Program-made: the position numbers and the translations under genes | Notes under the pieces: generated by a model | Database searches by the model: none | Seen by the model: only the letters and a program-made list of their open reading frames with translations | Told to the model about the DNA's origin: nothing | Assembly (NCBI GenBank): GCA_019677205.1 | Contig: JAAMXY010000543.1 | Coordinates: forward strand, 1-37,819 | Source: Pinguiococcus pyrenoidosus | Taxonomy: Eukaryota > Sar > Pinguiophyceae > Pinguiochrysidales > Pinguiochrysidaceae | Reading direction: 5' to 3' | Length of the DNA: 37,819 nucleotides | Part shown: positions 309 to 26,248 of the stretch, in pieces | How the letters are laid out: the number at the start of each line of letters is the position of its first letter | Position numbering within the stretch: the first letter of the stretch is position 1

Positions 309-3300
309 ATGGGAAGCATCTCCGACACCTATGATCGAATCGCCAGCGGCCTCGGCTGCGATGACGCGACGCAGGCGCTCGGGCGGCAGATCCTGCGCCA
401 GATCCACGCGGCGCAAGTCAGCTCTTGTATCGCGGAGGAGAGCGAGGTCTGGGCGGCCATTGCGTTGTTTTTAGCTGCCTTCCGAAATGCCGCAGAAGCG
501 TCGAAGTCGGCCCCTCTGTTGGAGGCGTTGAGAAGCAAGGAGAACCTTGCAGACGTCAGCCGCAGAACACAAGTGGAATTGTCGCGCATACTGGGGGCGG
601 CCAAGGTACTGCCACAACCGCGCTGAGCCCACCCCTGGATCCAGGTGTCGAGTTGATGATACTTTGCAGATCAGCATCGTGGACTTCTTCGAGTATGTCA
701 AGCTGCTGCCCACTGGCGAGCTGCGGGCGGCGGACGCAGCCGTCGCCGTGAAGGGCATCAAAGCGAGCTATGTTGTTACCAACGTCATCTACGACAAGTT
801 CGTGAAGCTGTGGTACGAAAATCACGCAAGATGCCTTGCTGCTCTACCGAAGTCGTGTGACGCTGTCCTTACGCATCGTCAGGGCGGATCGACTGGAGAT
901 CCTGAGGAAGGCCACGAACGCGGAGATGGATCGTCTTCTTGACGGGCCGCATCAGGCGAACCTTCCCGGTTTCACTTGGGTTCTGTACTTGATTTCCCGG
1001 CAGTACGTAGAACCCAACAAGCAGGTAGGTATTGCAGAGCGCTGAAGCTCCCCACGTCAAGTGTCCCAAGAGCCTCATCCGAACGCTGACGTCCAAACGA
1101 AAATGGCAGATGGATGTGGTTGCCAGCTACCAGGTCCTTCTCGCCGTACTGAGCTTCGTGCTGAGGCACGCGTATCCTGTCCCAAAGTCCACGCCGAACC
1201 TCGCAGACACGCTGGCAGGTGCGGCAGGCGTGGCCGCGGACGCTGTTCGAGCGCATGAAGACGACATCGAGAAGCTCTGCAAGGAGCTCCTGGGGGCGTC
1301 GCAACTTGAGCTCCATGGAGCAAGGACGGATGACGATGGAGATGGCGCAGCCGTGAGCGGGCATGAGAAGCTGCAAAGTGGTCCACGCTTCGAGGATTTG
1401 CTCCACCCGGCGGTGCTGAAGCGAAACATGCTGAGCCTGAACAGCTTCTACGACCGCCTGGGCGTCGACATCACGAGGCTTGACGAGCGATACGTCCTCA
1501 ATGAGCAGCTGTCCCATCTCTTGGATACGCCGTGCAGGGTGACGACAAGTGGAAGGCGGCCCACCCCCCCGGAAGGGGCGTCCAGGCAGCTCACCTCCGA
1601 CTACAACGAGCACAGATATCGAACGCCGACGAAGCCAAAGCGAGCTTCGCCGCAGGCCGGTCTCGAAGCCACGCCAACGCCGCTGTCTTCCAGCCAGTCT
1701 GACATCAAGTGGATGTGCAGCCTCGACAACTTTGAGCAGCACCCAGGACCGGCGCTGGTGGCCGCCATGGAGGCGTGCTCCGAGAATCCGCAGCCGACCA
1801 TGGCGCAGCGGATCGACGGCGTGTTCGACGAGTTTCAGAAGTCGCAGTTCGCTCGGTCCCTAGAGAAGCACTCCAGGGATGCGCGGAACTCCACTCACGG
1901 AACGACATCGGGCAAGGCAGAGACCGCCGAGGCGGTCGATGGCGACGACGAAAACCCTCTCGGCCTTGGCTTCGGCCGGGGCTTCGGCTTGGAGAAGGGG
2001 AGGATTGTGGCGCTGTACTACGCAGTTCTGGAGGACATGATCCAGAGCGAGACGCGCCGCCTAAGATCAAAGGATCACAGCGCCATCCTGCGGAACGATG
2101 TTTTCCACAGGTCGCTGCTGGCGTGCTGCTGTGAGGTGATCCTGAAGCCGGCCTGTGTGATCGCGTTCACGTACCCCGACCTGCTTGGCTACCTGGGCTT
2201 GACGAGCTTCGACTTCCAAACGACAATCGAGCCTTTCGTCCGCGCTGCGCCCGACCTTCCCAGCGGGCTGAAGCGACATATGAACGATCTGCTCGACGTG
2301 ATTCTCCTGCAAGACGCCTGGAAGGACGGTTCGCCCCTTTTTAGCGCGCTGGATGAGCAGCGGGAGTCCGGCGTGTGGCCGTTGAGTTGCATCCTGGAGA
2401 AGCCCAGAAGAGCTCCGGAGCTGCTGGAGAGGAAAGAAGAGAGCGAAGGCGAGCCTGAGACGAAGCACGAAGCAACCGGTGGGAGGCGCACACGGATCCT
2501 GAAGACGTTCTTCAGCCGCGTTCTCGCTGCGTCGGCGGCTCGGTTGTACGCGTTGACACGGCAGCTGGCGCTCGACGATCTTCTGGTTGACCAGATCTGG
2601 ACGCTGCTCAAGCACTGCATCTTTGAGCATCACGGCCTCCTGCGCGGTCGCCACATCGACACGATGCTGCTCAGCAGCATCTACGCGGTCGCCAAGATCA
2701 CGACGCCTTCCTCGGCGAAAGCACGGCTCACCTTCAAGAAGATCATGGGTGCCTACAAGAACTCGGCCTTCAGCTCGCTATGGCTCCAAGTGGTGGCCCA
2801 CGTGCCGCTCGGGGAAGGGCAGGTGAGATGGACGGAAAAGGCAGAGGACACGGTGCCTTGTCCTTGCCTGCTTGTCCTTGCCTGTCTCGGTCTGCTAACG
2901 GGGAATCTCTGGTGGGTCTCAACAGGCAAAGCGGAACGGCAATATCATCGAGTTCTACAACGCGGTCTTCATCAAAAGCGTCCGAACTTACGTTCTGCGC
3001 TTTCAGAACTCCGCGCAACGGGCGCGCGGGTATCAGCGGTCGACTGGCCTTCCGCATCCGGGCATCCTGCGGTCGCCACAGCGGCTCCACAAGTCGAACT
3101 TGTTTCTCGCCGCGCCTGGTGATCTGAACAACCTCGCAATGACTCCCCGAACACGCGCTCTCTATGCCTTCGGGGAGTCGCCTTCGAAGGACCTCCAGCT
3201 CATCAATCGGGCGGTGAACAAAAGGCCGCCACCCCTCGAGGACTATGTAGATAGTGACGAGTCCGCCGAAGAGCAGCGGCGCAACAAGATCGCGCGGATA

Positions 3301-3354
3301 AAGAGGCGATTTCCAGTCCTGGACAAGCAGCAGCAGGGGCACGAAGGATCGTGA
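309..3354 (+). CDS. RB1: Retinoblastoma (pRB/RBR/MAT3) homologue
   Basis: Pocket protein that, in animals, plants and Chlamydomonas, binds E2F-DP and chromatin factors in the nucleus to hold cells before S phase. Model: exons 309-605, 670-812, 853-1024, 1110-2822 and 2926-3354, giving about 917 residues, close to the family norm. The second intron (813-852, 40 nt) is uncertain; a phase-0 alternative is 802-898. Exons 1-4 carry the N-terminal cyclin-like domain (ISIVDFFEYVKLL; VASYQVLLAVLSFVLRH). Pocket A is about residues 400-612 (YYAVLEDMIQSE, NDVFHRSLLACCCEV, LTSFDF). Pocket B is about 671-800 (IWTLLKHCIF, RHIDTMLLSSIYAVAK, IIEFYNAVF). The RbC core TPRTRALYAFGES lies near 847. Residues equivalent to human Y709, K713, Y756 and N757 of the LxCxE cleft are all kept. 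SP/TP sites near the C-terminus suit CDK control. The start is placed at ATG 309; ATG 54 is the in-frame alternative. Confidence 0.93.
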
Positions 3355-3442
3355 TGACGAGCGCCCAATGATTTCCGCTGCTTCGACGGGCGTGGGGAGA
3401 GAGCTTGCAAAGTTTCTTTTTAGTGTTGCGTGGGTAGCTTTT

Positions 3443-3540
3443 GACTTCTGGCTTCTAGCTTTTGGCTTCTGGCTTGTGGCTTGTGGCTTGTGGCTTGTGG
3501 CTTCTGGCTTGTGGCTTCTGGCTTCTGGCTTGTGGCTTCT
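3443..3540. repeat. 7-bp minisatellite, 14 units
   Basis: Fourteen tandem copies of a 7-bp unit, consensus GGCTTST (S = C or G). The first and third units are degenerate (GACTTCT, AGCTTTT). It lies in the 356-bp convergent spacer between the retinoblastoma stop (3354) and the proteasome stop (3711), so it is outside coding sequence. Apart from this repeat I see no gene in 3355-3710. Confidence 0.95.
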
Positions 3541-3710
3541 CCGGATTTGGAAGGCATTTACTTGGATGGGCATGGATAGTTTTCCGCTGTGGCAATGAGT
3601 GCTACGAGCAATTTTTGCAAAGAACGCGTGTTGCTCGACTGGCGCTTCAGCGAGGAGTCCACGGGCACAAGCCGCATCCATGGTTCAACCCTTGCGCAGC
3701 TAGGAGCGGC

Positions 3711-4715
3711 CTATGTCTCCATCGGAGTCTCGCCGTCTCCCTTGGCCTCTTCCGCAGCTTCCGCCGGCGCCGTATCTCCTCCGGAGGTGTCTCCTTCCGC
3801 GGCCTTGATTTCTGCAGACAGGGTGTTGACCTCGTCTTCGGAGACCTCGGTAGCGCCATCGCTGCGGACGATGACAAGGCCCATGTTGCTCGAACCGGAG
3901 TCGACGACTTCGAGAAGCGTTCGGACGGTGAGCTTCACAGCCTCCTCCTCAGAGAGCCCGGCCGTCCAGTTGTTCTCCAGCAGCTCCCGCATGTTCTTGC
4001 TGTTCTTGCCCCCGATCGCGTTGGCCTTCCACTCGCTATATGTGCCCGCCGGGTCGGTCTGGAAAAGCTGCGGCGAGCCGTCTGGCGAGAAGCCCGCAAG
4101 CAGCGCTGAAACGCCGAAAGGCCGCACGCCGCCCCTTTGCGTGTATCTGCGTACAAGATGGCCGCTTGTGGTGAGACGTCCGTAGCTTGGTCTCCAAGAT
4201 GCACCGAGCCTCCGGCCTTTCCACGATCCCTCCCACTCGGTTGGCCGCTGGTGGATCCTGAGCTTCGTACCTCTGCTGCGTCTTTGCCAAGAAGCGAGAC
4301 ACATACTCCACCGAGGGCGCGTCGTCGCAGGTGAGCCGGTAGCTCTGGCACTCGATCCGGGCCTTGGTGGTGAGCACCCGCGCATCGGCGGTGAGGCCGG
4401 CAAAGGCAGCGGTGATGTGATCGTCCAGCTGCACGACCTTCCGGATGGTGCGCGTCTCGCGCAGCTTTGCGGTCGCGCGGCGCTCCACGCCCAGCACCAC
4501 CACGTCGGTCCCGCGCACACCGACCACTGCGCTTCCCGCCTTCACCGCATTGATGGCATATTCGACCTGGGTCACCGGATGCAGGCGATGAGAACGGCAG
4601 AAGGGAGGCTTCGGAGGCGTTACAGCAACGGATCGAGGAGCTCGGAGAGGCGGCGCACCTGAAATAAGTGGCCGTCTGGGGAGAAAACTGTAATGGCGCG
4701 GTCGTAGCGACTCAT
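3711..4715 (-). CDS. PSMA7: 20S proteasome alpha-4 subunit (PSMA7/PAD1 type)
   Basis: Alpha-ring subunit of the 20S proteasome; alpha subunits gate the chamber and are not proteolytic. Exons on the minus strand: 4715-4659, 4566-4271 and 4146-3711. Introns are 92 nt (phase 0) and 124 nt (phase 2). The product is 262 residues. The N-terminal alpha signature is split by intron 1: MSRYDRAITVFSPDGHLFQ joined to VEYAINAVKAGSAVVGVRG. Then come GVERRATAKL, LDDHITAAFAGLTADAR, RIECQSYRL and GGVRPFGVSALLAGF, which match alpha-4 most closely among the seven alpha types. About 15 residues more than usual form an acidic Ala/Glu-rich C-terminus ending in ETPMET. It is divergent to the EH-domain gene across 512 bp and convergent to the retinoblastoma gene. 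Confidence 0.96.
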
Positions 4716-5227
4716 CGTACTCGCACGTTGCAAAGCTGCTGCGCTCAACGCCGCGCTGTTCGCGCCAAAGTTTCGAAAAGATTTGTGTCGCAGGATTTCG
4801 TTGGAATTCGGAAGGATGAAGAGAAGAAGACCTGAAGCCAAAGCATCGGCGTTCGTCATTCGTCACACGCTGGACGAATACTGACATGCGCGATATCCGC
4901 GAGAAGGCGAGAAGGTGGCATGACGAGTAGCGAACCAGCGCCGAGCGGCAGCTCCAGGGGCGCCAATCAGAGAATGCGGATGTGTTGAAAGGAAAAACCT
5001 CCGCTCTCAACTCCATCGATCATTAGATGCCACAGAAACTCTCAGATACTTTAACATTTAGAAACGCTCCTCCTGTCACACGCCGTTCTCTTCATGCTTC
5101 ATGCTCCATGCGCATCGCCCGATAGTCGAGGCCCATTTGCGCGCCTTCTCCAGAATCCGAGGTTTTTGAATTCCGGCCGGTACTGAAGAGCCGTTCAAAG
5201 GAGAGAGAGAGGGAGAGCAGCAGACGG
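4716..5227. promoter_or_regulatory. Divergent spacer between proteasome and EH-domain genes
   Basis: 512 bp separate the start codons of two genes pointing away from each other, so both promoters should lie here. I see no convincing TATA box and no coding sequence. A purine-rich run of GA repeats at about 5200-5222 sits just before the proposed EH-gene start. Confidence 0.4.
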
Positions 5228-6703
5228 ATGTGGGGCTTGCGGCAGAACCGAAGACGAGGTGAGCAAGGCACTGGACCGATGTTTCAAGCGCGTTCGAAGC
5301 TCTGACAAGTGAAGTACCTGACAATTACGTCTTAATACTTTGCTGTCGGCAGCTCCGGCTAGGCGACAGCAGGCCGTCACCGCGCCAACTTTCCAAGTTC
5401 TCCGAGAGATTCCGCCCGGCGTGGGGCACATCCGCGCAGATGAAAGACTCGTCCTGGTCACCGTGCCTCCCTCCATGCGTCCTGGGACCACCATTCAGGT
5501 GAGCAGCGCCCTCCGCTCAGGAGGAGAAGAAAGACGGCGAAGGAGTCTTGAGATGAGGGCTTGGGGTCGGAAGAACGGAAGATCCTGTGAAGAGGCGAAA
5601 GAGACGCGGTGGTTACGCATCATGTGGACGCAAAGCTAACCAGGGCCCTCGCGATTGCGCACGTCTGTAGGCGCGAGTCGAAGGCCGCACTTTCCACATC
5701 CCGGTGCCTCCCAAGTCCGGCTGGCGGGGGAATCAGTTCTATGCCAAGGTGCCGCTCCCGCAGCCGGCCGCGCCACCAGCCGTCGCGGCGGCACAGCCGC
5801 CGCAGTATCGCTACCGTGCAGCGCCGGCGCCAGTGGCTCCGCCCGGTGCGTACGGGGCTCCGCCCCCGGCCGTGCGACCTCCGCCTGCCTATGGAGCGGT
5901 CCAGACGGTGGTAAGTGCCCTCCCTGCTGTGGAGCATGCTTCTCTCACCTCCGACGCCTGGCCCTTGCCACCTGGCATCTGACACCGGACGCGACGGGAC
6001 TCTGCACAGGTTGTCGGCGGCGGAAGTGCGGCAACCAATGGATCTGCACCCGTTGTGGATGCTCCGCTGGCCGAGGCAGTGATCATGGACGACTCGGCCG
6101 AGCTGGCAAGGATGCCCATCGCGACCGGTACTGCCTTCGTGGTCTCCCAGAGCGGCGGCGGCGGCGGCAGCAGCAGCAGCAACAGTGGCGTGGTTCACCA
6201 CGGACCTCAGGTGCGTGGTAGTTCGGAGCGGCTCGGACATGTGTCCTCTTTCATGCCTTTTGTCGTGCTGACTCTGCTCTCGTTGCGCTCAGCCGCGAGT
6301 GGGCGGGTCTCCGGTTCCGTCCGAGTACTCTACGGCGAATCCGTTTCAGATGAACGCACCACCGGAGGCCGAGCCGGAGGACGCCGCGGGGTCGCACGGG
6401 CTCGATCCGGACTGGCTGCCCGGCCTCTTCATGGAGGAGTACCGGCGGACGTTCTACCTACATGAGCCCGTCAATGGCAAGCTCACTCCCGACAAGGTCC
6501 GAGACGCCCTCATTCAGACAGGCACGCCAGTCGACGTGCTTCGAGAAGTGTGGGAGCTGGCAGACGCAGACCGCAACGGCGAGCTGGATCTGGAGGAGTT
6601 TGCGCTGGCGATGTTCCTCTGCACGCAATCCCAGGCTGGCCAGCAGCTGCCAGATCGCTCGCAACCGCTACCTAGAGAGCTCATGCCGCCGTCCAAGCGA
6701 TGA
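5228..6703 (+). CDS. EH-domain (Eps15-homology) protein with Pro/Ala-rich N-terminus
   Basis: EH domains bind NPF tripeptides in endocytosis and membrane-traffic factors. Exons: 5228-5258, 5353-5498, 5671-5910, 6010-6210 and 6293-6703, giving 342 residues with all phases agreeing. The first tiny exon is inferred: ATG at 5228, a GTGAGC donor, and phase-1 joining to 5353; no Met opens the next exon. Residues 44-90 hold paired VTVPPSMRPG and FHIPVPP motifs, a repeat-like module seen in many algal proteins. Residues 88-140 are Pro/Ala-rich. The C-terminal EH domain (about 248-342) has GKLTPDKVRDAL, a complete EF-hand loop at 297-308 (D-A-D-R-N-G-E-L-D-L-E-E) and the closing LMPPSKR. A native NPF lies at 222-224. 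At one EH domain and no ATPase it is much smaller than Eps15, intersectin or EHD proteins. Confidence 0.85.
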
Positions 6704-7564: not shown

Positions 7565-10500
7565 ATGACGTTGGCAGCCGTCGGCTTGCTAGCCGCCGCG
7601 CTCCTGCTGCCCGCAGCAGCCCAAGGCGGCTCTGCAGTCCTGCAGAGCTCGGTGCTGGAGGTGGCCGTGGGCGCTGCAGGGTCGTTGGGAGATGCCGAGG
7701 CCATCGCGTCCCATGCGGAGAACAAGACCTACATCTTCGTCGACGAGGTTGGGGCCATTGTCCCCGTCATCGACGGCGATGGCTTGGGCTTCGTTGCGCG
7801 CGCTCCCGGCGCCGCTTGGAACGAGAGCACGGGAGACTTCATGATGGTGTTCATCGCTGTGGAAGGTACCATGGCGCCCAGCGTGATGCAGCCTTGCATC
7901 CCAGCGGCAACATGCTTCGTGATTCGCACTGATGACGACCGTGGTTGCAGGCTGGGGATTGTACGTGGCCAACGAGGCCCTTGGCACATCCTTCAGCGCC
8001 ACCTTTCGCGGGCTCTTGGGAGAGAATGAGAACTTCCGTTCCACTCCGGAGCTGCATGAGCTCGGCACCGGAGACCGTCACGTGGCGATCACGCGTGGGG
8101 ACGTCACCGATGCGTCCGGGCAGCTGCGCGTAACGCACGTGTTCTCGTTGCAAGCGGCCTCTGCTACGCTCGCTGCGGACGTCTGCATTATGAACCTCGG
8201 GCCGACGACCTTGCAGGTGCGTACCGCGAAGCTTGGGCCACAGCTAGCCAAGCCCGTTTCATCAAGCCGTTCCATCTCCGTTTCTCCGTCGCTTCCACTA
8301 GGACGTCACGTACACCAGGCAGCTCGATCCGCAGTCGGCACAAGACGAGCGACGGACCTTGAACTTTCTTGGCCACGAGGCCTTTGCAGGGCAAACGACC
8401 GTGTCCGCGTCGAAGCTCTCCCCTGGCACGGGAAATGTGACGCTCTTCACGCCGGAGAAGAACAACGCGCGCACCAAGAGCAATGCCGCGTTCTTCCCAG
8501 ATGTCTTGTCGGGGTTTCCGCCGATCCTGGACCCATTGTACGCGTTCGAGTTCGACAGCAGCGGTGCGACGCCGACCACTTCGGATGACAAGCTGTACCT
8601 CTCCCTGCGGAAGGAGACCCTTGCAAGCGGAGAGACGCACTGCTTCGATTTTGGGTACTACGTCCAGACGGAGCCCATCTCGACGGCACTAGAAGAAGTC
8701 ACTCAGAGTTCGAACTGCCTGCGCTTCCTGCATGTGGCCATGGCGCCGGCGAATGAAAGCCTGGTGGCCCTAGCAGTCGACGAGTCCGTTCTGGACACAA
8801 GCAACCTCAGCGCGTTGATCAACATAACCAGTGCTGCAAACCCAGAGCGCTTCGTCCTCGTAGAGGATGTGGTCGTGGACGTGATCTCTTTGAACGATGG
8901 CGCAGATCGGCATGGCGTTGTGTCCGCGTTTGTGGACCTTGGCGGCCTTGCCGACGACGACGTCTTGCTCTTCAGCGCGGAGCTGAGGCAGAACGACTCC
9001 GTCCTCTGCCGCGATGATCGCGCTTCGTTCCTCGCTGGTGACCCACGGATCGAGTTCATGTCTCAAGGCGGCCTCGAGGACGGCGCGGCATTTCCGCTGT
9101 ATCAGTTCAGCCAGAACAATCTCTCCTTTCAGGTGACCTTTCCAGAGAACTTTACCGCGGCGGACTACGCATTGAGCGTGCAGCTTGTGTATCACGACAC
9201 GGATGTCAATGAGCTGGTGGCCGTGGCGGATGCCGCTTCCGTGAGCTCGGCCACCAACGTTGATGGCAACGTCACGGTGTTCGACGCGATCGTGGATGTC
9301 ACGTCCTTGACCAGAAACGACACCGTGCTGCTCCGGGCGCTTCTGACGTCCTCGACGCAGCCCTTCGACTTCGAGCCGCGCTCGTGGGCGACGCTGGCGC
9401 AGGTCTTTGAAGAGAACATTGCGCCGACGGTCACGCTATCGCATGCGACGCTGGACGAAACTTCCGTCCCAAACGCGTTGGTTGGAACCCTCTTGGTCTC
9501 CGATGACAACGTCGGGCAGAACCACGTCCTGTCGATCGTCGACAACCCCAACGACATCTTTGCCATCGTCAATGACACCCAGCTCGTCGTGCGAGACGGC
9601 GTGGATTATGAACAGCTCGTTGCGTCCTTTGGCACCAACGAGCTCGAGGTCAAGATCATGGTGGACGATCAGCAACTGATCAATTGCTGCACCGAGAGCG
9701 ACTTTGTCATCGAGGTCCTCGACGTGAACGAACCTGCGCGTAGCATCCAGCCTGCGAACTTGTCGATCTTGGAGAACGAACCCGTGGGGACACTGCTCGC
9801 GAAGCTTGAAGCCGTGGACGATGACGTGGGCGACAGCCACCTCTTCTTCTTGATAGACTCGAGCGTCGTGGTGCAAATCGACGCGTCCTCCGGCAACGTG
9901 ACCAGCCTGGTCGCCTTCGACTACGAGACGCAGAGCGTCTACGAAGAGGTCGTCCGCGTGGTGGACGACGGCATCCCGTCAAAGTCTGCTGACTTTGTGC
10001 TGCGCATCCAAGTTGACGACGTGCCCGAGGCGCCGACGTCCTGCAACGTGTCTTGCGCCTTTGCGCCGGCGAATGGTACCGATCCCTCCTTCGTCTTCGG
10101 AGGCCTCGGGTGCATCCTGCCCGAAGGCACCGATGCGGCCGCGCTGATCCTACGAGTCGACGTGCCCGAGGATGGATTCACGTACAATTTTACACTCACC
10201 GAGGCGTCGGAGCTAGACACGCTCGTGACGCTCTCCAGCAACGGCACGCTCGAGACGGCGGCGGATGCTGACATCGACTTCGAGTCGATTTCGACTCCTT
10301 TTCAGAAGTTCGAGGTGGATGTACGCAATGCGGCGTTGGCGGATCTGAACTACGTCTGCACCTTCACCGTCCAGGTCGAAGACGTGGCAGAGCCGCCGGT
10401 AGCCGAAGACCTTTTCTGCGAGACCGTGGAGAACCTCGACGAGGGTGACTCCTTCACAAACAGCACCGGGGCCGTGTCCGCCTGCCTGGTCACGGCGGAG

Positions 10501-13500
10501 GCGGTGCATCGCAACGAGGAGCTGGATTTCTCGATCACTGCGTTGAATTCGGTGGTTGGCGCCAACCTCACCGACGTGCTTTCGCTGCCCTTTGACATCC
10601 ATCGATGCAGTGGCGAGCTTTACGTTAACGGCTCGATGGACTTTGAGTTTGTGAGCGAGTACAACGTCACCATTACCGTGCGCTCGAGCATTTTTCCCTT
10701 CTTGGAGACGGAGATCTTTGGCATCATCACCGTCCTTGACGTCAATGACCCGCCGGTCTTCGTGTCAACGCCGGAGCTGCATGTGGACGAGCATGCCCCG
10801 CTGATGACGCAGCTGGAGCCGGCCTTGTCGTCAGTCGTCACTGATCCAGATGCCGATTCGTCCAAGGACTTCTGCTGTGATCTGGAGTACACGTTGACAC
10901 CCTCCGCGCCCGCCGAGGCGGGCATCTTCGAAGTCGCCGGCACGCACATTGTGGTTGCAGATTCCGAAGCTCTGGATTTCGAGAGGCAGGACAGCTATGA
11001 CATGATCCTCTCAGTCACGGACGCCGGCGGTCTGTCTACGGAGGCTCCGATCACCATTCGCATCAATGATGTGAACGAAGCACCCACAATCCAGCTCGGT
11101 GCGAACATCACGGTCTTTGCCTATCTCCTGGAAGACGCCGCAAACGGCACAAGCGTGGGCGACGTGGTCACGGTGCTCGACGAGGACCAGCATCAGCGTC
11201 TGGACTGCTACATCTCATCTGCTGATCACGTGGCAGCTTTTGTGCTGGATGAAAGCGCCGTGGCTGCCTCTGCGGGCCAGCGCCTGGATTTTCAGCTGCT
11301 CTACGAACAGGATGGCAGCGACCTCTTCATCGACTTTGAGCGTCACGCGTCGCCGGTTCTAGACATCCAGGTCTTCTGCCAAGACAACGCGACCGACAGC
11401 CTCAACGTCACGCGGACGCTGCCCGTCGAGCTGGTCAACGTCAACGAGAATCCGGAATGTACGGCGGAGGAGTTCGTGGTCAACGTCTTCGAGAACGTCT
11501 CCACCGCGCTGATCCTCGCGAACATGAGCGAGCTCTGCTCGGACCCTGACAACGCCGCAGTCCTGAGCTACGTATACGAGGACATCACTAGCGGGGTAGC
11601 GAGCCTCGACACCCTCGCGTTGCGCACGACTAGTGTTGGCACGATTCTCCCGCCGGTGCTGGGCCTGGACTTCGAGCGGCGGCAGAAGTACAAGATCAAC
11701 GTTGTTGTCAAGGACGAGTTCGGTCTGCAGGTTGCCGTTAACGTGAGCGTGAATGTCCAGGACGTCAACGAGCCCCCTGAGTGGGGCTCCTTCGGGACGT
11801 CGGCGCCGATCTTCATATACGAAGACGCTGTTGACGGGGACCTGGTGCAGATTGGCGTGCCCGGCACGTCGGATGATTTGGAGCTGCTGGCCTTCGATCC
11901 GGAGGGTCAGGTGCTCACCTACCACACCCTCAACACGTCCGCCTTTGCGGTCGCGAACACGTCGAATCTGCGTTTCACGGACGCGGTGGCGATCAACTAC
12001 GAGGACAGCACAAGCATCCCCGTGCAGGTCGTCGCCGATGACGGGCAGCTCACGGCGGATCTGGAGCTGACGCTCCAGGTCGTGGACGTCAACGAGCCGC
12101 CATCATGCTTGAACAGCACCTGCGTGTGGAAGGTGCACGAGGGCATCTCAGTCGACTGCGTCTTTGTCGCGACAGATCCGGACGGCTTCGACACGGCATA
12201 TGGTCAGCTAGTCGTCGCCGACACTTCCATCTTGGCAGAGACCTACTTCTCCGTCGCCAGTGCCTCTGCGCTCTCGGCGTCGGCCTTCCAGATGTCCTTG
12301 CTTGGCAACGCGACGGCCTTTGCCTTGGTCTCACCAACGAGCAACGTGACCGACCAAGTGATCGTAAGCGTTGCGGACGGCGGTGGCCTTGGGTGTACTG
12401 CTCATGTTGATGTCATCATCTACCTGGAGCCCACGAGTGATGCATTGGTATTGCCGACTTGTCCAGGCGCCACGGACGGCCTCGTTGTCGACGAAGAGGG
12501 CGCTCTCAATGCGACGGTCGGCGCAATCATTCCTTCCGACTCGGGAGTGACCGACGCCGCGTTTAGTGCCAACATTCTTCGGGTTGCGAACGCGACGTCC
12601 GTGGCTCTCGTGGGCGACAATCGAATCGCCAAGGCCGAAGGTGGCTACGCCACTGCCTTTCACTACGAGAGCACTAGCGCAGCCCTGACCAGGGCCGTCA
12701 CAGACTTTGAGTTCCACCTGCAGCGGCAGATCAACCTGACCTTCGCTGCCAGCAACGCGGACGGGACTTCCTTCTGCACCGCCGTCTTCGACATCGATCG
12801 GAGCACGGCGCTGCCGACACTGGCGGTGCTTCAGGTGTACGCGGACGAGAACCTGGAAGCCGGTCAGCCTCTGAGCAGCGGGGGCGTCGCTGTCTCAAGC
12901 ATCAACGAGCTGAACGGCGACGTGCTGGATGAAGTGCTGGACGACTTTGTCTACTTCCTCGAAGCCGTCGATCACTCGGAGGCGGAAAACCCGATCGCTC
13001 TCGACGCCACCACTGGTGTCTTGTCGCGAAAGGCCGACCCCGCGATCGTGCTGGACTTTGAGAGTCGCAGCTCGTACAGTTATGTGTACGGCGTGCGAAC
13101 CTCCAACAGCAGCAGCAACGCCACGTTGGCGCTGCTGGTGAATGACCTGCTCGAGGCGCCGCGGATTCTGAACGATACCATCCGTCTCGGCGAGCAGTCG
13201 ACCACATCGCCTTTCGACGGCCACTTCCTTCACGCCGTGGACGGCGACTTTCCGACCACATCTCCGTGCCTGGACTCGTGCGGCTTGCTGTACGAAGTCG
13301 TGCGAACCGAGACGACGCTCGGCGGGAGCATTCCGAACTACTTCTCGATTGACCCCAGCGACGGTCGCCTGTCTTTGCTGAGAGCCTTGGACTTTGAGGA
13401 CCTCGCCATCTTTCTCGTGGTCTTCCGGGTATCCGACGCCGGCGGCAGCGGCTTGGTATCCGACCACACCGTCGAGATTCGTGTTGGCGACGTCGACGAC

Positions 13501-16500
13501 GCCGAGATCACGTCCATCGTGCAGGACAGCGGCATCGAGACCTACGACGAGTACTACGCACAGGTCTTCGCGTCCACGGCCTCCCTTGACACGCTGACAG
13601 ACGGGTCCGCGCAGGCGATTGCGTCTCCTTTCCCCGTAGGAGCCCCCCTGGAGAGCAGTCTGTTCAGGCCGCTGAACCTCAGCATCAGCGGGGGAGATAC
13701 GATTCAGGTCCATGGCCGAGACATTGGGCCGACGGCGGAGCGCATGCTTCGTGACGGCATCGATGCCAACGCGGACATCTCCGTTGAAGCTCTGTATGGA
13801 AGCCTAACGTCCCCATCCACAGTCTTTCGAAGCAACTGCTCCTTGACGACGCCGAACACGCTGGTGTCGTGCGTCACTGTGGCGGGAACCGGTCGCGCCG
13901 ACCTATGGAAACTGAATGTCGTGGTGGACTACCCAGGTGGCTATGTGGCCAACGCCACCACGGCTGCGTTCACGGTGCCGTACTCGACATATGAGCCACC
14001 GGAGATACTTGAGATCTCCGATGCGTTGGACCTACGCACGGAAGGCGGAGGAGTCGTTGCTGTCGGCGGTGCGAACCTTGGATTCGACGTCGCTGTTGAC
14101 CGACAGCTCTACACGCGCTCCGTGGTGTACGCCGACGAGGCGTCCAGCGTGGTCGTCGCCGAAGCTTGGGCCTCAGCCCCCTGCGCTTTGACGGTCGTGG
14201 ACTCTGAGGTCGAATGCACTATTGGCGCGGGCGTCGGAACGATTACGGAGTCGTACCTCGACGTCGACGGGGTCGTGTCCCAAGCTTTCTCGACGGTGTC
14301 CCTGAGCTATGGGCACCCGCAGATCCTGAACATCACGGGACGCACCGTGTTCCCCACGGATGGCAGCGGCTCCGAATACGTGGAACTACATGGAATCAAC
14401 TTCGGGACGGATGCCTCTCTCCTCACGGTCACCTACGGCACCTCCGGCTCGCTTTCCTTCACGGCGGAGAGCTGCGTCGTGCTGGAAGCCCACACGCGTA
14501 TTGCATGCCTACCGGCTGCGGGTTCTGGCGCTTCTCACGTCTGGCAAGTGCGCCTGGGCCACCTGGTTTCCAACGAGAGCACGGTCACGACTGCGTACGA
14601 GGCACCGACGCTTTCGCGCGCTTACAGCACCTCGCCGGCGCCCTGGAGTACAGCGGGCGGCCAAGAGATCTACTTGGAGGGCAGCAACCTGGGCGACGAC
14701 GTGGCGACGGCCGCTGCCGAGGCTCGAATGATCAGCCTGCTGGACACCGTGACTCTGGTGGACTGTGAAACCATCACACCCCACGAGCTGCTCCGATGCG
14801 ATACTCCCGCGGCGACGGGCATGAACCTCCACTTCCAGGCGGAGATCGGCAGTCAAGTGTCGAACGTGGTGGCCACCAACCTCTCGTTCGCGACGCCGGT
14901 GATCACCGCGATTACACCGAGCCAGAACTTTCAGACCGTCGGTGGCGAAGTCATCGACGTGGAGGGGACCAACTTCGGCGTTAGGAACGAGACGATCCAG
15001 ACCGTCTTCTACTTTGGGGACGACAATACCACCTACTTTGTGACCGACCAGTGTTTCCTCCTCGTGGCGCACAGCACGATTCGATGCGTCACCCTTCCTG
15101 GAAGCGGCCGGAACTTGAAGTTCCGCGTGCAGATCGATGGCCAGTGGAGCGACGCACCGTCGTTTGCCTACCAAGCGCCGTCCGTCGCGTTTCTGCGGCT
15201 TGGGGACGGCAACCAGACGTCGCTTTCTGTCTACGGCGGCGACGTGGTACAACTGCTGGGAGCCAACTTTGGAGACGACGATGACGACGTCGACTTCGTC
15301 ACCTACGCCACGTCGTTCTCGGGGTCGCTCACGGCGACGGGCTGCTTGGTGGTGTCGCACGCTGAAGTGCGCTGCAACACGACCGAAGGGTTTGGGCAGA
15401 ACGCCACCTTCAGTATCTCGATCAAGGGTCAACTGAGTGAAGAAAGCGACGTTTCAAGCGGCGGGTTTCCTCTTCCCTTGTTTGACAACTTCGCCGGCGG
15501 AGCTTTCCCGCGATTGGCTTACGCGACGCCGAACGTTTCTCTGGTTAGCCCCAGCATCATCGACACCATCGGCGGCCAGGAAGTCTTCATCTACGGCACC
15601 GACCTGGCGCTCTTCCTGAACCCTGTGCTGGTTGTCGGCGCCTCCGAAGTCGCCTACACGGTCCGTGCCACCGGCAGAGAAGGAGATGAGATCTCTTTCT
15701 TTACGCCGGAAGGCGACGGTATCAGCGTCGCGCTGTCGCTTCGGTACTCTGCCGAGGTGACGTACAGCTTTGGTCACCTGAGCTACGCCGCGCCGGTGAT
15801 CGACGGCGTCTTCTCTCTGACACGAGACGGAGACGTCTACTACGCCGTCATCCGCGGTCGCAACTTCGGCAGCGCGCCGCTGGCCTTCTTGAGCAATGCC
15901 AACGGCACCACGGCACTGAATGTCTCGGTGGCGTCGCATCTGGAAATCTTCTTCTCCACCTCCTTTGCGGAGGGAAACGTCACCGTGGCGGTGCAGGGCG
16001 TCGTTTCCGAGCCTGCCGTGTACGTCTACGGCGAGCCGAGGCTCCTTGCCACGCAAGTGTTCCCTCCCGGGACCGATGCTCCTGCGGATCTGCTGCCGTT
16101 TGCGGACGTCAGCTCGGCGGCGCTAACGACGCTCAACACACACGGAGGGGAGCTACTGGTCTTGCTGGGTCAGTACTGGGGCACGAGCCTCGGCGCACTC
16201 GAGCTTAGCATAGACGACGAGCCGTGCGTTCCGATTCCAGGTACGTTCTCTCAACCCGGCCACCTCCGATGGAGCGGCGTCGTCTCGGCTTGTATCAAAC
16301 CTGTGCTCAGTTTGCTTTCTTTCGTACGCGTCAGGTTCTTTTGTGTCGTCGGGCACGACGTCTCTGAGCGACGTGGACCTCAACGTGCTATTCGGCAGCC
16401 TCGGCGCAGACGGCGAGGCGGAGCTGCAGCAGGTGGCCTGCACGACACCTGGTGGAGAGGGCCGCTGGCTGAGCTTGCAAGCAACGGTGTCCAGTAGCGA

Positions 16501-19500
16501 CAGCACTCCGTGCTGCAGCGCCTTCTCGGTGGTGAATGGCTCCGACGCCTGCCTCTCCAACGTCGAGTGCATCTCGTACGCGGCGCCCAGCGTCAGCGAC
16601 GTGATTGCTTCGCAAGCGCACACCGACGCCGCGGCGAATCCCTACAACATCAGCGTCGTCGGCACCAACTTTGGCGTCGACCCGGCCGTGACCATCGGCG
16701 GTGTTCCCGCTACCGTAATGCTGTTCTCGTCCGAGTTCGCCAGAAGCGAGCTTATCGTTCGCGCCGTGGAGGGCGCCGGAGCCAACCTGGACGTTTTGGT
16801 GACTTCCGGCGCACAGACGTCGGAGGCGTCGATGTCGGCGACGTTCAGCTATGATCCGCCCGCGCTTCTGCGGTCCAGCTTGCAAGACGCCGTGATACCA
16901 ACGCAAGGCGGATCTTTCGTGGTCCAGGGGTCCAACTTCGGCCCGGCGCCTACGGAGCTCTTGCTCGCCTTGGTGCTTCCCGACGCCAGCGAGTTTGCTG
17001 TTTCGGCCGTGAGCCACGACCACAGCTCGGCAACTTTTTCTCTGCCCGACGGCCAAGGCGAGGCCTTCCCCGTGGTTGTGAACGCATCTGGCCAGGCGTC
17101 TTCGCCAGGAGCTGACTACAACCTTAGCTACGCTAGCCCCGCCATCTCCAGCATCAACCCGACGTTCCCGGTGGTGTCCAACACCACCGGTGGCGCCGTC
17201 GCGACGCTGGTGGGCAGCAACTTTGGTACCCTGGATACCGCGACCATTGAGAGCGGCGTCACGGGCGTCTTCCACGGACAGCTGGCCTCCGACGTAGCCG
17301 ACATCCAGCCGGCCTCCACCACGTACCACGTGTGGAGCCACACCAACATCGTCTTTGAGGTGCCGGAAGGTCAAGGGCAGGAGGCGTCGTTCCTGGTGGT
17401 CACCGGCGACCAGTTCGCGACGCCGGCCATCCTTGTTAACTACCGCCCACCGGAGATCACGACGATCACGGTGGCGGCCGGCGTCGACAAGCCCACGGAA
17501 GGTGGCTTTCTCATCCAGCTGGAGGGATACAACTTCGGCACCTCCGGCGCCGCCATTCAGATCTTCGACCCACTGAGGAACGTGTCGACGTCGGAAGACG
17601 ACTTCCTGCGAATGCCCGAGGCCGCCGCCACCATCGTGAACCAGACGCATCTGCAGATCCTGGCCGTGGCGCCCGCTGGCATTGGCGCAGACCTGTCCGT
17701 TCGCTTGACGGTGGACGACCAGGAGGACGTCTTTGCGTCCTTCGCGTACGACACCCCGATCGTTGAGAGGGTGGATTTCTCCGATGGTGGCAATGCCGCC
17801 GGCGGGGCCGAGCTCACCATCTTCGGCAGCAACTTTGGCACCACGCGGTCGCCGGCGTCGGTGACGCTGGGAAACACTAGCGACTGGTGCCCCAGCGCCA
17901 GGTGGGTGTCGACGCTGGGATCGGATCCTTTCGTGCGCTGCGACGCGACGCCGGCCACGCGAGTTGGTACCTACAACCTGCTGCTCACCGTGGCGTTCCA
18001 GACGTCCAACGGCACGCTACTGGCGCTGGAATGCAAGCGAGGCTTCTTCGGTACGGACGGGGAGTTGTGTACCGACTGCGGAGATGGGTCTGGATTCTCC
18101 TGCCCGAACGACGGCATGGAGAATCCGACGGCAGCCAGCGGCTTCTGGGTCGCCCAGGTGGCCGTCGACTCCAGCGACGCCCTGGACGGATGTCCGCCCA
18201 ACACCCTGGACCGCCCAGAGACGTGCCCGCTGGCGCTTCCGTGTCTGCCGGCCGACGCATGCCTGGGGAACAACACCTGCGCAGAGGGCTACAGCGACTT
18301 GGTGGTTCGCTGCGCCGGCTGCGACGTGGGCTACTTCAAGGTCAATGGCCGCTGCAGCGAGTGCCCGGAGATCCACATCGCCGTGTACATCAGTCTGTTG
18401 ATTCTGCCTTGCGCCGCGGCGTACATCGCGTGGCGGCTGTCGCGCACCAAGGTGAACATTGGCATTCTGAGCATCGGCTTCGACTACGTGCAGACCATTG
18501 CGATTTTCGCCACGGCCGAGATCTCCTGGCCGCCGACGCTCGTGAGCATCTTCAACTACCTCACGCTCTTCAACTTCAATCTGGAGCTCATGGCGCCGGA
18601 GTGCTGGGACTCCTACGAGTACAGCTACGAAGAGAAGTGGTGGACGATCGAGTCCTTCTACCCAACCATCTTCGTCGGCGGCCTCGGCGCCGGCATCGCC
18701 ATCGGCCTGCTGGGCAGACTGGTCAAGGCCACGTGCTACAACATCGATGTCGCTGCGATCCCGCTGCTGGTCTTCCCCTACTCGGTGGACTTCTGCATCG
18801 GCGGCATCGTCATGTCCTTCTACTGGCTGTATCTCTTGGTTACGAACACCAGCATCGAAGTGTTCCACTGCGTCCCGACCGACCCGGACGACGGCAACCG
18901 GTACATGGCGGCCGTGGGGACGGACGGCGGGCTGTGTCATCGCGAGGGGACCATGCAGCAGCGCCTGCTGCCCTACGCGATCGTGTTCTTTCTGGTGTAC
19001 AGCATCGCCTTCCCCTTAAGTGTGGCGTGGCTGCTGAGCAAGAAGAAGGAGTACATCATCCGGGACCAGCTCATTCTGGCGAGCAGCGGCTCGGAGACGG
19101 TGATCACGGGTCCGAACGCGCCGGACGCCGGCGCGTCGCTGCCGTTTGATGTGAACGACGCGCTGCTGGTGAGCTTCCGCCGGCGCTTCGGCAGACTGTA
19201 CATGTACTTCAAGCCGCGGCGGTATTTCTGGATCCTCTGCATCCTGCTGCGCAAGATCTCCATCAGCGTGTGCAAGGTGGCCTTCGCGGGCAACACCGTC
19301 TTCATGCTGTGCACCATCCTCATGATCCTGTTCGTGAGCTACGCCGTGCACCTACGCGCCAAGCCGTACATGTCCACCAGCGAGTACGACAACATCCTGG
19401 AGAAGGACGCCGAGCTTCTGCCGGACTACGTCGACACCTTTGTGATCCTGCGCGAGCAGAACCGGGAGCGCCTGAAGGCCCGAGCGAAGAAGATGCGGCT

Positions 19501-21166
19501 GGGTGAGACGGGTTTCATGCAGTCGGACAACATCCTCGAGAGGCAGGGTACCACCACCACGCGCGTGCTCAAGTACTTCCTGGACTACAACACGGTCGAG
19601 GCTGTGCTGCTCTTCAGCGCGTGTCTCATCTGCCTGAGCGCCATCATGTTCGAGTCGCGACGCAGCGACCTGGACCAGAGCGCCGACGTGGGGCTCACGT
19701 CGTACACTCTGGTCATCCTCTTCGGGAGTCTGGCATACTTCCTCTACGTCGTCGCCGTCGACTCCACGCTGGCGCTGTGCCCCGACTACCTCAGCAAGAA
19801 GCCACAGTCCAAGGACCCAGACGAAGACGACTACGACAGCCCTGGCAAGAACGAGGAGGGCGTCGTGGAGGAGGAGCCACCCACCCCGGGCGTCGGCTTC
19901 CAGCTCTACAGCATGGCGAACTTCGCAAAGCCCCTGTCCGGCGCCGAAGATGGCGAGAAAAATGGCGGCGGCTTCGGCGATGATGATCAGAGGACGGCGG
20001 AAAAGAAAACCGAAGATGACAAGGAGACGCAAGTCCGCGTGAAGAGGGCCGAGAAGCTACGGCGCAAGAGCGTCTCGATCACACCGACCGCCGCCGAGAG
20101 GAATCTTGCGGCGCAACTGCGGCGAGAACTGATTCCCAGCAAGGCCAAAGCAGGGGTCGACGCGCAGTCCCCGTCGGCAGGCGGCTCGCAATCCTCAGGG
20201 GCCGATGGCGGCGAAGAGAACTCGCCGACACGGAAGGAGGACGCCGCGCCGAAGCGGCGCTTGAGTCGCTTCTTCCAGGGCATCTCGGACAAGATGTTCA
20301 CCCCGAAACCCGTCCGCGCGATTGTCGACGCCCGCGCCTCGCCCAACGAGCTTGACAACGAGCAGCCGTTCTTCCCCGAGGCCGAGTCGGAACCGCCGAC
20401 GCCCGTGTCCTTCGCCGCCAGCATGCCACCCGTTCCAGATGAAGCGATGGATCGCAGAGGAAGCATGTGGGAGCTGATGAACCCGCCGAAGAAGGAGGAC
20501 GAGAACTGGGAGTTCGAAGCGCAGGCCATAGCTGGTTGGTGGGGAGGCCGGCAGGAGGGGGAGGCGACGGGCGCGAGGCCACCCCCGCCAAGCGGCATAC
20601 CGCCACCCGGCGCCAAGGCCGGCACGTTGGAGCATCAGGTGAGCTCTGGTCGCCGCCGCGTGGTCGCGCCCATCAACGACATGCTTGGGGAACACGGCAG
20701 CAAGGCCGAAGGCCCGAGCACCAGGCAAGTGGCGATGGCGCCCGTTGCACCGACGCCGCCGGAGCCAAGGCCGCCGCAGCGAAGGCTGCCGGACCCAAGG
20801 CCTCCGCAGCGAAGGCTGCCAGAGCCAAGGCCGCCAGAGCCAAGGCCGCCAGAGTCAAGGCCGCCAGAGCCAAGGCGGCAAGAGCCGCGAGCAGCGCCAC
20901 AAGGCTTTCTGGGAGCAATGGGCGACGAACCTGAAAGAGACCAAGAGTCAAGGAAGCAAAGGCGCGTTCTCGCGTCGATGGACGCGATGCTGGGCGAGTC
21001 GTGGAGAGCCGACGACGGCAAGGACTCGGACAGGGGTTACGAATCAGAAGTGTATGTACCCGCCGCTCAGTCTCCACCGCCAGCGCCGCGGCCGCCACCG
21101 CCTCTTATGTCGCAGCGACCCAAGGGAGAATCTTCTCTGTCGCGACTTTTCAATTCCGAATCCTAG
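7565..21166 (+). CDS. Giant cadherin/IPT multi-pass surface protein (4445 residues)
   Basis: Exons: 7565-7865, 7951-8216, 8302-16240 and 16335-21166; introns 85, 85 and 94 nt, phases 1, 0, 1. Residues 1-20 are a signal peptide (LLAAALLLPAAAQ). About residues 557-1920 hold roughly eleven cadherin-like repeats marked by DVNEPP, DVNDPP, DVNEAP linkers and LDFE motifs. About 1980-3400 hold around fourteen IPT/TIG repeats, each with GG...V.G.NFG (starts near 2089, 2195, 2290, 2389, 2482, 2599, 2687, 2920, 3011, 3104, 3208, 3310). A Cys-rich stalk (about 3401-3515; CTDCGDG, CAEGY, CAGCDVGYFKVNGRCSEC) precedes about nine to eleven membrane segments from 3517 to about 3980. The last 465 residues are charged and Pro-rich and presumably cytoplasmic. 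Many N-x-S/T sites suit glycosylation. Likely role: calcium-linked adhesion or mechanical/chemical sensing at the cell surface. This is inferred; the multi-pass part resembles no receptor I can name with confidence. Confidence 0.92.
20755..20890 (+). repeat. Pro-Glu-Pro-Arg repeat in the cytoplasmic tail
   Basis: Coding minisatellite in the last exon of the giant gene. A 15-bp unit close to GCCAAGGCCGCCAGA repeats about eight times, with longer 30-bp periods at its start. In frame it reads (P/E)PRPP(E/Q) over about residues 4309-4352. Such runs form extended linkers and can bind SH3, WW or EVH1 domains. All three forward frames stay open here, which creates spurious Lys/Ala-rich ORFs. Confidence 0.9.
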
Positions 21167-24609: not shown

Positions 24610-26248
24610 ATGCCTGCGCGCCGGCGCGCCAGTAGACAGTCGAGGAAGAATGACGAGGAGGTTCCTGAGGCCTCCGCGGATGCAACGCCAGAGGGTGAGA
24701 CGGCGGCGGCAGAGACGCGCCCAAAGAAGCGAGACAGACGCGGGGCGCCCGCGAAGAAGACCGCCACATCCCGGAAGCGCGGTTCCGCTAAGCTCAGCGA
24801 CGATGGAGACAAGCCCCCCGATGCAGCAGTAGAGGCGAAAGACGAGAAAAGCGGCGGAGACTCTCCTCCTGCGAAGAAAGCACGACGCGGATCCTCTAAA
24901 TCCCACAAGGCGTCCAAGCCGAAAGAGCTGGAGACGTATGAAGTGGGCGAAACCGTAAGTTTTCGAGCTTGCCTCTACTCTCTATGCTTTTTTTTTCTGC
25001 TCTTTTCTGCTCTTTTCTGCTCTTTTCTGCTCTTTCTCTGCTCTCCAATCGTTCACTGAGTAAGGCGCCCTTGTCTAGGTGTATGCGCGTGACCTTGATC
25101 GGTTGTACAAGGGCAAGGTGGTGCGAGCTCGGAACGACCCCTCCGTCGGACCGCAGTACTTCATCCACTTCCTCGGGTGGAACAAGAAATGGGACTCCTG
25201 GCAGTCGCCGCTCACTATGTGCAAGGACACGCCCGCCAACGAGCGCCGGGCGAAGGAGATGGGCAGCGGCAAGGGATCGGCTGGCAAGAAGGACCGCCGC
25301 GCAGCGGCAGCTGGGGAGGGGCAGGAGGAAGATGCGGACCAGCAAGCAGAGGAGCTGGAAAGGAAGCGGGCCAAGCGGCAGAAGCTAGCCAAGCAGCAGC
25401 TTTTTGACGATTCTGAGCTGCCGCAGATGAAGGTGAGGCCTGCTGCCGCTCGAGCGTGCCGTCTTCCTGGATCTCGTCCGGGACCTATCCCCCGGCTCAA
25501 TGAAATCTCCATGCCTTGCTCTGATCAGGTGCCCATGGCGATGTGCCTCAAGTCGGCGGCTGTTGACGACTGGGAGAAGGTGACGAAGCAGGGGCTGGTG
25601 GTCCCGCTGCCGCGCGCTTTGAGCATTGGCGACGTGCTGCAAGCTTTTGTCAAGTCCCGGGCGGACGCGGAGGAGGATGGCGACAACGGCACACAGCAAT
25701 TCGCGGACAGCCTCGAGCGCTACTTCAACGAGGGGGTCAGTGCGCTATTCCTGTACCGCGAGGAAGAGCAGCAGTGGAAGGAGGTCCGAAAGCGCCAGCT
25801 GACTCCGTCGAAGGTCTATGGGCCGGAGCATCTGCTGCGACTGCTGGTGAAGCTACCGTTCCTTGCGAGAACCATCTCCATGGTCCCCCGGCAAGTGCAA
25901 ACCCTCAAGCGTCACATCTCGGAGCTGCTGCAGTTCCTGCAGAAGAATCAGGATGAGTTCTTCCTGGAGGAGTACGTCATCTGCGAGAAACCCAAGTTTG
26001 GAACCAAGTTTCCCCAGAAGTACAAGGACGACATCGAGGATGACAAACCCGAGGAGCAAGTCTCAGAGTTGCAGGTCTGCATGGTGTGTACGGGGGCTGC
26101 GGATGCTGTGGAGACTGCAGACGCTGGAGCATCTTGCCAGGAAGCTGCGACGTCTGTCGAATCTGCTGATTCGGTGCGCGCTGCGCAGGCCTCGGAAACG
26201 GCCCCCGGGGTTGAGAATGCGCCAAGCTTGGCAGTGGAGGTGTCGTAG
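24610..26248 (+). CDS. MORF4L1: MRG15/Eaf3-like chromodomain and MRG-domain protein
   Basis: Nuclear chromatin subunit. In yeast and animals Eaf3/MRG15 reads H3K36 methylation and sits in both the NuA4 acetyltransferase and Rpd3S/Sin3 deacetylase complexes. Exons: 24610-24954, 25079-25432 and 25529-26248; introns 124 and 96 nt, phase 0; 472 residues. The start is the first ATG of the frame. Residues 1-105 are basic with likely nuclear signals (RPKKRDRR, PAKKAR). The chromodomain (about 108-180) spans intron 1: ETYEVGET joined to VYARDLDRLYKGKVV, then YFIHFLGWNKKWDSW, including the aromatic-cage tryptophans. A charged Lys/Glu linker follows, then the MRG domain (about 245-430: VDDWEKVTKQ, YFNEGVSALFLYREE, VYGPEHLLRLLVKLPF, FLQKNQDEFF). 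The Ala/Glu-rich tail of about 40 residues is unusual. Confidence 0.95.
24991..25045. repeat. 10-bp pyrimidine repeat in MRG intron 1
   Basis: Three perfect copies of TCTTTTCTGC (25001-25030) with degenerate copies on both sides lie in the first intron, upstream of the acceptor at 25077-25078. The run forms most of its polypyrimidine tract. Confidence 0.9.

What the first reader, a model, noticed from the sequence alone, without database searches (positions are those of the whole stretch)
7565..21166. Giant cadherin + IPT/TIG + multi-pass membrane architecture
Sequence shows a signal peptide, about 11 cadherin-like repeats, about 14 IPT/TIG repeats, a Cys-rich stalk, then a cluster of roughly 9-11 hydrophobic segments and a 465-residue tail. 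Known families carry parts of this: classical cadherins and fibrocystin-like IPT proteins have one membrane pass, and adhesion GPCRs have seven plus a GAIN domain, which I do not see. Joining both repeat classes to a larger multi-pass core may be a distinct class of protist surface sensor or channel-like protein. The 7.9-kb third exon is also striking beside otherwise short exons.
Basis: partly seen in the sequence, partly recalled or inferred. Interest (0 to 1): 0.85.

Follow-up and report, generated by a model that had tools for sequence, protein, structure and literature searches.

The report
Giant cadherin-TIG receptor with channel-like core
A single-celled organism carries a giant surface protein in which adhesion repeats of the kind that hold animal cells together are joined to a membrane core distantly related to a stretch-activated fungal calcium channel, and the same design recurs in many other protists.

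Summary
Four exons (window 7565-21166, +) give 4445 residues: signal peptide, 10 detectable cadherin repeats, 14 IPT/TIG repeats, Cys-rich stalk, nine predicted membrane helices, 462-residue tail. The fusion is real: a paralog in the same genome carries cadherin, TIG and core in one uninterrupted 4346-codon frame. The design is not unique. The genome has three members; a protein search found 91 relatives, 90 with TIG and 58 with cadherin in precomputed annotation, including named entries from Triparma, Cafeteria and Hondaea. The core is no orphan: it is homologous (profile comparison E about 1e-16, far above shuffled controls) to cores of other proteins in this genome that have a similar stalk but other ectodomains. 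The best of those sits at the Pfam TRP (PF06011) cut-off (E 1e-6). The window core itself is far below that cut-off, and no solved structure matched its predicted fold. Most relatives carry an NP[LMFI] tail motif, often NPLF or NPMF; the window copy lacks it. Best explanation: a calcium-dependent adhesion receptor whose tether pulls on a TRP/Flc-like core. Homology and topology are computed here; channel activity and force gating are inferred. New variant of a known kind.

The parts
7565..7865 (+). exon 1; aa 1-20 signal-peptide-like
7866..7950 (+). intron 1 (GT-AG, 85 bases; splice sites chosen by consensus)
7951..8216 (+). exon 2
8217..8301 (+). intron 2 (GT-AG, 85 bases; splice sites chosen by consensus)
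8302..16240 (+). exon 3 (7.9 kb)
9415..13503 (+). cadherin block, aa 561-1923, 10 repeats detected; LDxE-like motifs at 9 places and DxNDxP-like at 7
13609..18037 (+). IPT/TIG block, aa 1959-3403, 14 repeats detected (interrupted by intron 3)
16241..16334 (+). intron 3 (GT-AG, 94 bases; splice sites chosen by consensus)
16335..21166 (+). exon 4 with stop codon
18038..18364 (+). Cys-rich stalk aa 3404-3512; DUF7630-like at 18239-18364, below cut-off
18374..19777 (+). nine-helix membrane core, aa 3516-3983, predicted ectodomain outside and tail inside
19778..21163 (+). 462-residue cytosolic tail; no NP motif in its first 130 residues
20755..20886 (+). 15-base tandem repeat coding the Pro-rich PEPRPP stretch of the tail

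Best explanation
A giant calcium-dependent adhesion receptor built onto a TRP/Flc-like core. The cadherin rods, stiffened by calcium, and the TIG string bind a partner outside (another cell, prey or own coat). Pull on them is passed through the Cys-rich stalk straight into the first membrane helix of a nine-helix core, which changes state and lets calcium in or otherwise signals. Shown by computation: single gene, repeat order, stalk, nine-helix outside-to-inside topology, homology of the core to a protist stalk-plus-core superfamily, distant kinship of that superfamily to Pfam TRP. Inferred: surface location, ligand, calcium permeation, gating by force.
For: C39 paralog has cadherin, TIG and core in one open frame of 4346 codons. 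In 72 of 72 relatives with at least two cadherin and two TIG repeats, the last cadherin starts before the median TIG. Core against other stalk proteins: hhalign score 132.8, E 7e-17, A1 against A4 E 9e-17; controls 21.5 reversed and at most 48.2 over 8 block shuffles; 96.2 when the Ectocarpus row is dropped. All 5 PF06011 candidates of the genome at E<=1 lie in this superfamily, two of them in the giant family; the core of C386a matches PF06011 at E 9.8e-7. Nine helices, pLDDT 83.8, pTM 0.85; K+R denser on the predicted inside in 68 of 68 cores, 0.187 against 0.060. Three superfamily-invariant cysteines (core 83, 172, 194) all fall on the predicted outside. LDxE and DxND-like calcium motifs. 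Fission yeast Pkd2, a TRP-like channel with a nine-helix membrane domain, passes Ca2+ when the membrane is stretched (PMC11277609, passages); that Pkd2 belongs to PF06011 is recalled.
Against: The window core scores only 11.9-14.1 bits against PF06011 (cut-off 28.5), and full-length C386a drops to 22.1 bits. No solved structure resembles the models (best Foldseek E 0.87 and 0.084). PKD_channel and Ion_trans profiles do not hit the giants. No pore or selectivity motif was identified. The window copy is a long branch (1.75) and lacks the tail motif, so it may be functionally divergent. No transcript or protein evidence.
Confidence: 0.45

Rival explanations
1. Adhesion or recognition receptor whose core is an anchor and signalling module, not a channel: binding outside is read by cytosolic partners at the tail (NP[LM]F-like motif, coiled coil or Pro-rich stretch).
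For: NP[LMFI] in 66 of 81 tails against a shuffled mean of 3.0, maximum 9 of 500 shuffles; tails of C39 and C257 look coiled-coil-like (by eye). No channel profile above cut-off in the giants.
Against: Conservation inside the core is high and extends to polar residues in helices, more than a mere anchor needs; the window copy itself lacks the motif.
Confidence: 0.3
2. The core is a lipid or small-molecule carrier tied to an adhesive ectodomain; some fungal Flc proteins are described as flavin carriers (recalled, not searched).
For: Distant PF06011 kinship is to a family of mixed reported functions (recalled); a weak ECF transporter match in one of three paralogs (E 0.0035, below cut-off).
Against: The ECF match is in one member only and below cut-off; Pkd2 of the same broad kind passes calcium (PMC11277609 passages).
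Confidence: 0.15
3. Cell-coat, mastigoneme-like or prey-capture adhesin with no signalling role.
For: Cadherin and IPT features go with starvation-phase adhesion genes in the bicosoecid Cafeteria (PMC7852580, passages: cadherin named as stationary-phase gene; IPT row listed among adhesion functions, its phase not stated in the passage).
Against: A nine-helix conserved core is costly for simple anchoring; other superfamily members pair the same kind of core with quite different ectodomains.
Confidence: 0.08
4. Gene-model or assembly chimera of two genes.
For: No transcript was available; alternative splice pairs exist.
Against: C39 paralog carries all parts in one frame; independent relatives in other organisms share the order.
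Confidence: 0.02

Closest known systems
Stramenopile 'Cadherin domain-containing protein' entries (Triparma strigata TrST_g13361, T. verrucosa, Cafeteria roenbergensis, Hondaea fermentalgiana 'Protocadherin-like')
   Same: Cadherin, TIG and the same core, in the same order; 45% core identity of the C39 paralog to the Triparma strigata entry
   Different: The window copy is a long branch and lacks the tail NP motif
Cys-rich stalk proteins with the same type of core in this genome (C386 two copies, C268, C215, C388) and Ectocarpus P0095
   Same: Stalk pattern and homologous core
   Different: Ectodomains are TNFR/ephrin-receptor-like Cys repeats, a lactonase-type propeller or Chlam_PMP repeats, no cadherin found
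Fungal Pkd2/Flc, Pfam TRP PF06011 (family placing of Pkd2 recalled)
   Same: Nine-helix membrane domain and distant profile kinship through C386a
   Different: Window core far below the family cut-off; ectodomain is cadherin and TIG; fungal Pkd2 has a putative lipid-binding ectodomain
Classical and Fat-type cadherins; oomycete cadherins of Pythium (PMC2926784, section read)
   Same: Calcium-type cadherin repeats
   Different: Nine-helix core and TIG block. The Pythium section read does not mention a multi-pass core or TIG; whether those genes have one was not tested
Polycystin-1/2, adhesion GPCR, fibrocystin
   Same: Large ectodomain on a membrane part; TIG repeats in fibrocystin (recalled)
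   Different: No PKD_channel match; Pfam lists no GPS, REJ, PLAT or G8 at E<=0.01 in the large exons
Animal tip link (PCDH15/CDH23) with TMC channel (recalled)
   Same: Idea of a cadherin tether pulling on a channel
   Different: Here tether and core are one polypeptide; no sequence kinship tested

Membership tests
Cadherin-TIG-core giant family (this report) | Cadherin block, then TIG block, then stalk and core in one frame | tested here: met
   paralog C39
Cadherin-TIG-core giant family (this report) | NP[LMFI] motif within 130 residues after the core (66 of 81 tails) | tested here: not met
   window tail lacks NP; a frequent but not universal trait, so not used as defining
Stalk-plus-nine-helix-core superfamily | Core homologous by profile comparison, above controls | tested here: met
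Stalk-plus-nine-helix-core superfamily | DUF7630-like stalk above Pfam cut-off | tested here: inconclusive
   20.8 of 27 bits; the other members tested also lie below the cut-off
Pfam TRP PF06011 (fungal Flc/Pkd2) | Profile score over the curated cut-off | tested here: not met
   11.9 bits, 14.1 bits, cut-off 28.5; related C386a 28.4, 28.3 or 29.7 with neighbours, 22.1 full length
Pfam TRP PF06011 (fungal Flc/Pkd2) | Nine-helix membrane domain | tested here: met
   helix count is my assignment
Pfam TRP PF06011 (fungal Flc/Pkd2) | Calcium permeation | not testable with these tools
   needs electrophysiology
Adhesion GPCR | GPS/GAIN domain with seven helices | tested here: not met
   no GPS at E<=0.01 in exons 3 and 4; nine helices in model
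Polycystin channel PF08016 | PKD_channel profile match | tested here: not met
   31 genome matches at E<=1, none in the three giants
Voltage-gated-like Ion_trans PF00520 | Ion_trans profile match | tested here: not met
   83 genome matches at E<=1, none in the three giants
Classical cadherin | Cadherin repeats with calcium motifs | tested here: met
Classical cadherin | Single membrane pass and catenin-binding tail | tested here: not met
   nine helices; Pfam lists no catenin-binding domain at E<=0.01 in exon 4
Known membrane folds in the PDB | Confident structural match of the core | tested here: inconclusive

The most novel reading that the evidence does not exclude
Tether and channel in one chain: protists have fused what animal hearing builds from separate parts, a cadherin tip link and a force-gated channel, into a single polypeptide, so that pull on the adhesive rod opens a calcium path and an NPxF-type tail couples it to endocytosis or cytoskeleton.
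Probability: 0.2. Interest if true: 0.85.

Novelty: new variant of a known kind. Interest (0 to 1): 0.52.

Why it matters
Cadherins outside animals and their kin are usually catalogued by their repeats alone. If the core is a channel, these proteins would couple adhesion directly to calcium entry in protists with no catenin link shown, which bears on how adhesion and mechanosensing arose. The family is large, recurs in culturable protists (Cafeteria, Hondaea, Triparma), and gives a conserved core and tail motif that can be tested directly.

Tried and rejected
Two genes or chimera: rejected by the C39 frame. Adhesion GPCR, polycystin and Ion_trans channel: no profile match. Structural identity of the core: two models gave no confident PDB match; TRP, TMEM16, OSCA/TMEM63 and GPCR chains appear only at E above 0.4 in the first list and GPCR chains likewise in the second, which excludes nothing. 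Sequence search of the PDB: no match for the window stalk and part of the core or for the A4 profile. Core-only search, 5 hits, and exon-4 search, 9 hits at E<=0.01 of which P0104 is marginal; both scored only the roughly 8000 candidates sharing most words. Talin/PTB-type partner for the NPxF-like motif: no PID match, but no control rang, so this shows nothing; FERM_M 4 matches; EH 4 matches on 3 contigs. Organism name: not established; kinship to stramenopiles is inferred from the tree neighbours (Triparma) only. The tree is a quick one; the window and outgroup rows are long branches, its own warnings say joins of long branches may be false, and cadherin labels need about 11-12 changes; the 13 rows without cadherin may be truncated. 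Papers: searches brought up no description of this architecture; the library is open-access PMC only, and supplements were not readable.

Full report
What is there. The window lies in a 23.7 Mb, 768-contig assembly. Four exons on the + strand, 7565-21166, give a 4445-residue protein. Introns are 85, 85 and 94 bases with GT-AG ends; other in-frame pairs exist, so exact junctions are not proven. Parts in order: signal-peptide-like start; about 540 residues with no assigned domain (the part in exons 1-2, aa 1-189, was not scanned by Pfam); 10 cadherin repeats (561-1923); 14 TIG repeats (1959-3403); Cys-rich stalk; nine-helix core (3516-3983); 462-residue tail. The repeat counts come from home-made profiles seeded from the family; Pfam alone passes 2 cadherin and 3 TIG stretches.

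The fusion is real. The core finds two paralogs in the same genome: C39 (42% identity) and C257 (35%). In C39, cadherin, TIG and core matches all lie in one open frame of 4346 codons. C257 has two frames, cadherin mainly in the first and TIG plus core in the second, parted by what looks like one intron.

It is a family. A search with the C39 core (proteins of about 1670 to 5320 residues by the tool's length rule) gave 91 hits among 3301 candidates; by my count of the table 90 carry TIG and 58 carry cadherin PF00028. Named ones are Triparma strigata, T. verrucosa, Cafeteria roenbergensis and Hondaea fermentalgiana. Over the 104 proteins collected in three searches, home-made profiles find TIG in 99, and at least two cadherin repeats in 72; in 72 of those 72 the last cadherin starts before the median TIG. 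A quick tree of 68 cores and 6 outgroup cores puts the 68 in one group (support 100); 55 of 68 have at least two cadherin repeats. The window copy sits with C39, P0001 and Triparma strigata on a long branch, C257 with Triparma verrucosa, so at least two lineages of the family probably predate the split from Triparma (inference).

What the core is. Stalk-bearing proteins elsewhere in the genome (C386 two copies, C268, C215, C388) and Ectocarpus P0095 have other ectodomains but homologous cores: hhalign with stalks cut off in the scripts gave score 132.8, E 7e-17. Controls: reversed 21.5; eight block shuffles 28.9 to 48.2; without the Ectocarpus row 96.2, E 1e-11. A separate comparison of A1 (with stalk) against A4 gave E 9e-17. 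The Pfam TRP profile, searched over the whole genome at E<=1, has five candidates, all in this superfamily: C386, C268, C215, C257 and the window gene; C39, C388 and the second C386 copy are not among them. C386a reaches 28.4 bits on its core (cut-off 28.5, E 9.8e-7), 29.7 with neighbours, but 22.1 as a full-length protein. The window core gets 11.9 to 14.1 bits. So kinship to PF06011 is indirect, and I do not file the window protein as a member. PKD_channel (31 matches) and Ion_trans (83 matches) miss all three giants.

Structure and topology. Two AlphaFold models were made: stalk+core, pLDDT 78.5, pTM 0.80, and core alone, pLDDT 83.8, pTM 0.85. I read nine membrane helices by combining model helices with hydropathy. 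K+R is denser on the predicted inside in 68 of 68 cores, giving ectodomain out, tail in. Across a 38-row alignment, Q46, P59, C83, P103, C172, C194, Y215, P220, R299, P337 and E415 of the core are invariant; the three cysteines fall outside. No solved structure matched with confidence, which leaves the fold open.

Tail. Of 81 tails of at least 60 residues, 66 hold NP[LMFI] within 130 residues of the core, against a mean of 3.0 and a maximum of 9 in 500 shuffles; NPLF (19) and NPMF (17) are commonest. The sequences are related, so this is not 66 independent events. The window tail lacks it. NPxF/NPxY and NPF motifs bind PTB and EH adaptors (recalled); no partner was shown.

How it likely works. 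Calcium motifs of the cadherin type (9 LDxE-like, 7 DxNDxP-like) suggest rods that stiffen in calcium. The stalk leads directly into helix 1, so load on the ectodomain must reach the core (inference from order). The nearest studied channel, fission yeast Pkd2, has a nine-helix domain, passes calcium when the membrane is stretched, and its tail guides internalisation (PMC11277609, passages). By analogy, a tether-coupled calcium channel or sensor is the best single guess. In Cafeteria burkhardae work, cadherin is named among genes up in stationary phase, and IPT stands among enriched adhesion functions (PMC7852580, passages); whether those are members of this family was not tested.

What is known. 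Oomycete cadherins were reported in Pythium (PMC2926784, section 20 read) and cadherins noted in thraustochytrids (PMC8917795, passages). The passages I saw mention neither a multi-pass core nor TIG. Eight searches brought up no description of the architecture in open-access PMC. Verdict: real, conserved, not unique; new variant of a known kind.

Noticed in passing
window 6434-6700 (+): An EH-domain gene lies just upstream of the giant gene (54.6 bits); EH matches are found on only 3 contigs of the genome. EH domains bind NPF (recalled); the adjacency may be chance, and the window giant lacks an NP motif.
   Followed up: partly
G000 C70 and C424 (loci L001-L003, L005-L008): Open frames of 8873 and 8186 codons packed with TIG repeats, apparently without the core.
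   Followed up: no
L033 (C268:12500-21499): A lactonase-type propeller ectodomain joined to ephrin-receptor-like repeats, stalk and TRP-like core.
   Followed up: partly
window 20755-20886: 15-base tandem repeat, 8.8 copies, coding a Pro-Arg-rich tail stretch.
   Followed up: no
window 1032-3122 (+), 4036-5016 (-), 25079-26248 (+): Neighbouring open frames match retinoblastoma A/B, proteasome and MRG domains.
   Followed up: no
P0011 (4681 aa): A predicted protein with a second, partial core at its N-terminus (residues 13-287), perhaps two neighbouring genes merged by gene prediction.
   Followed up: no
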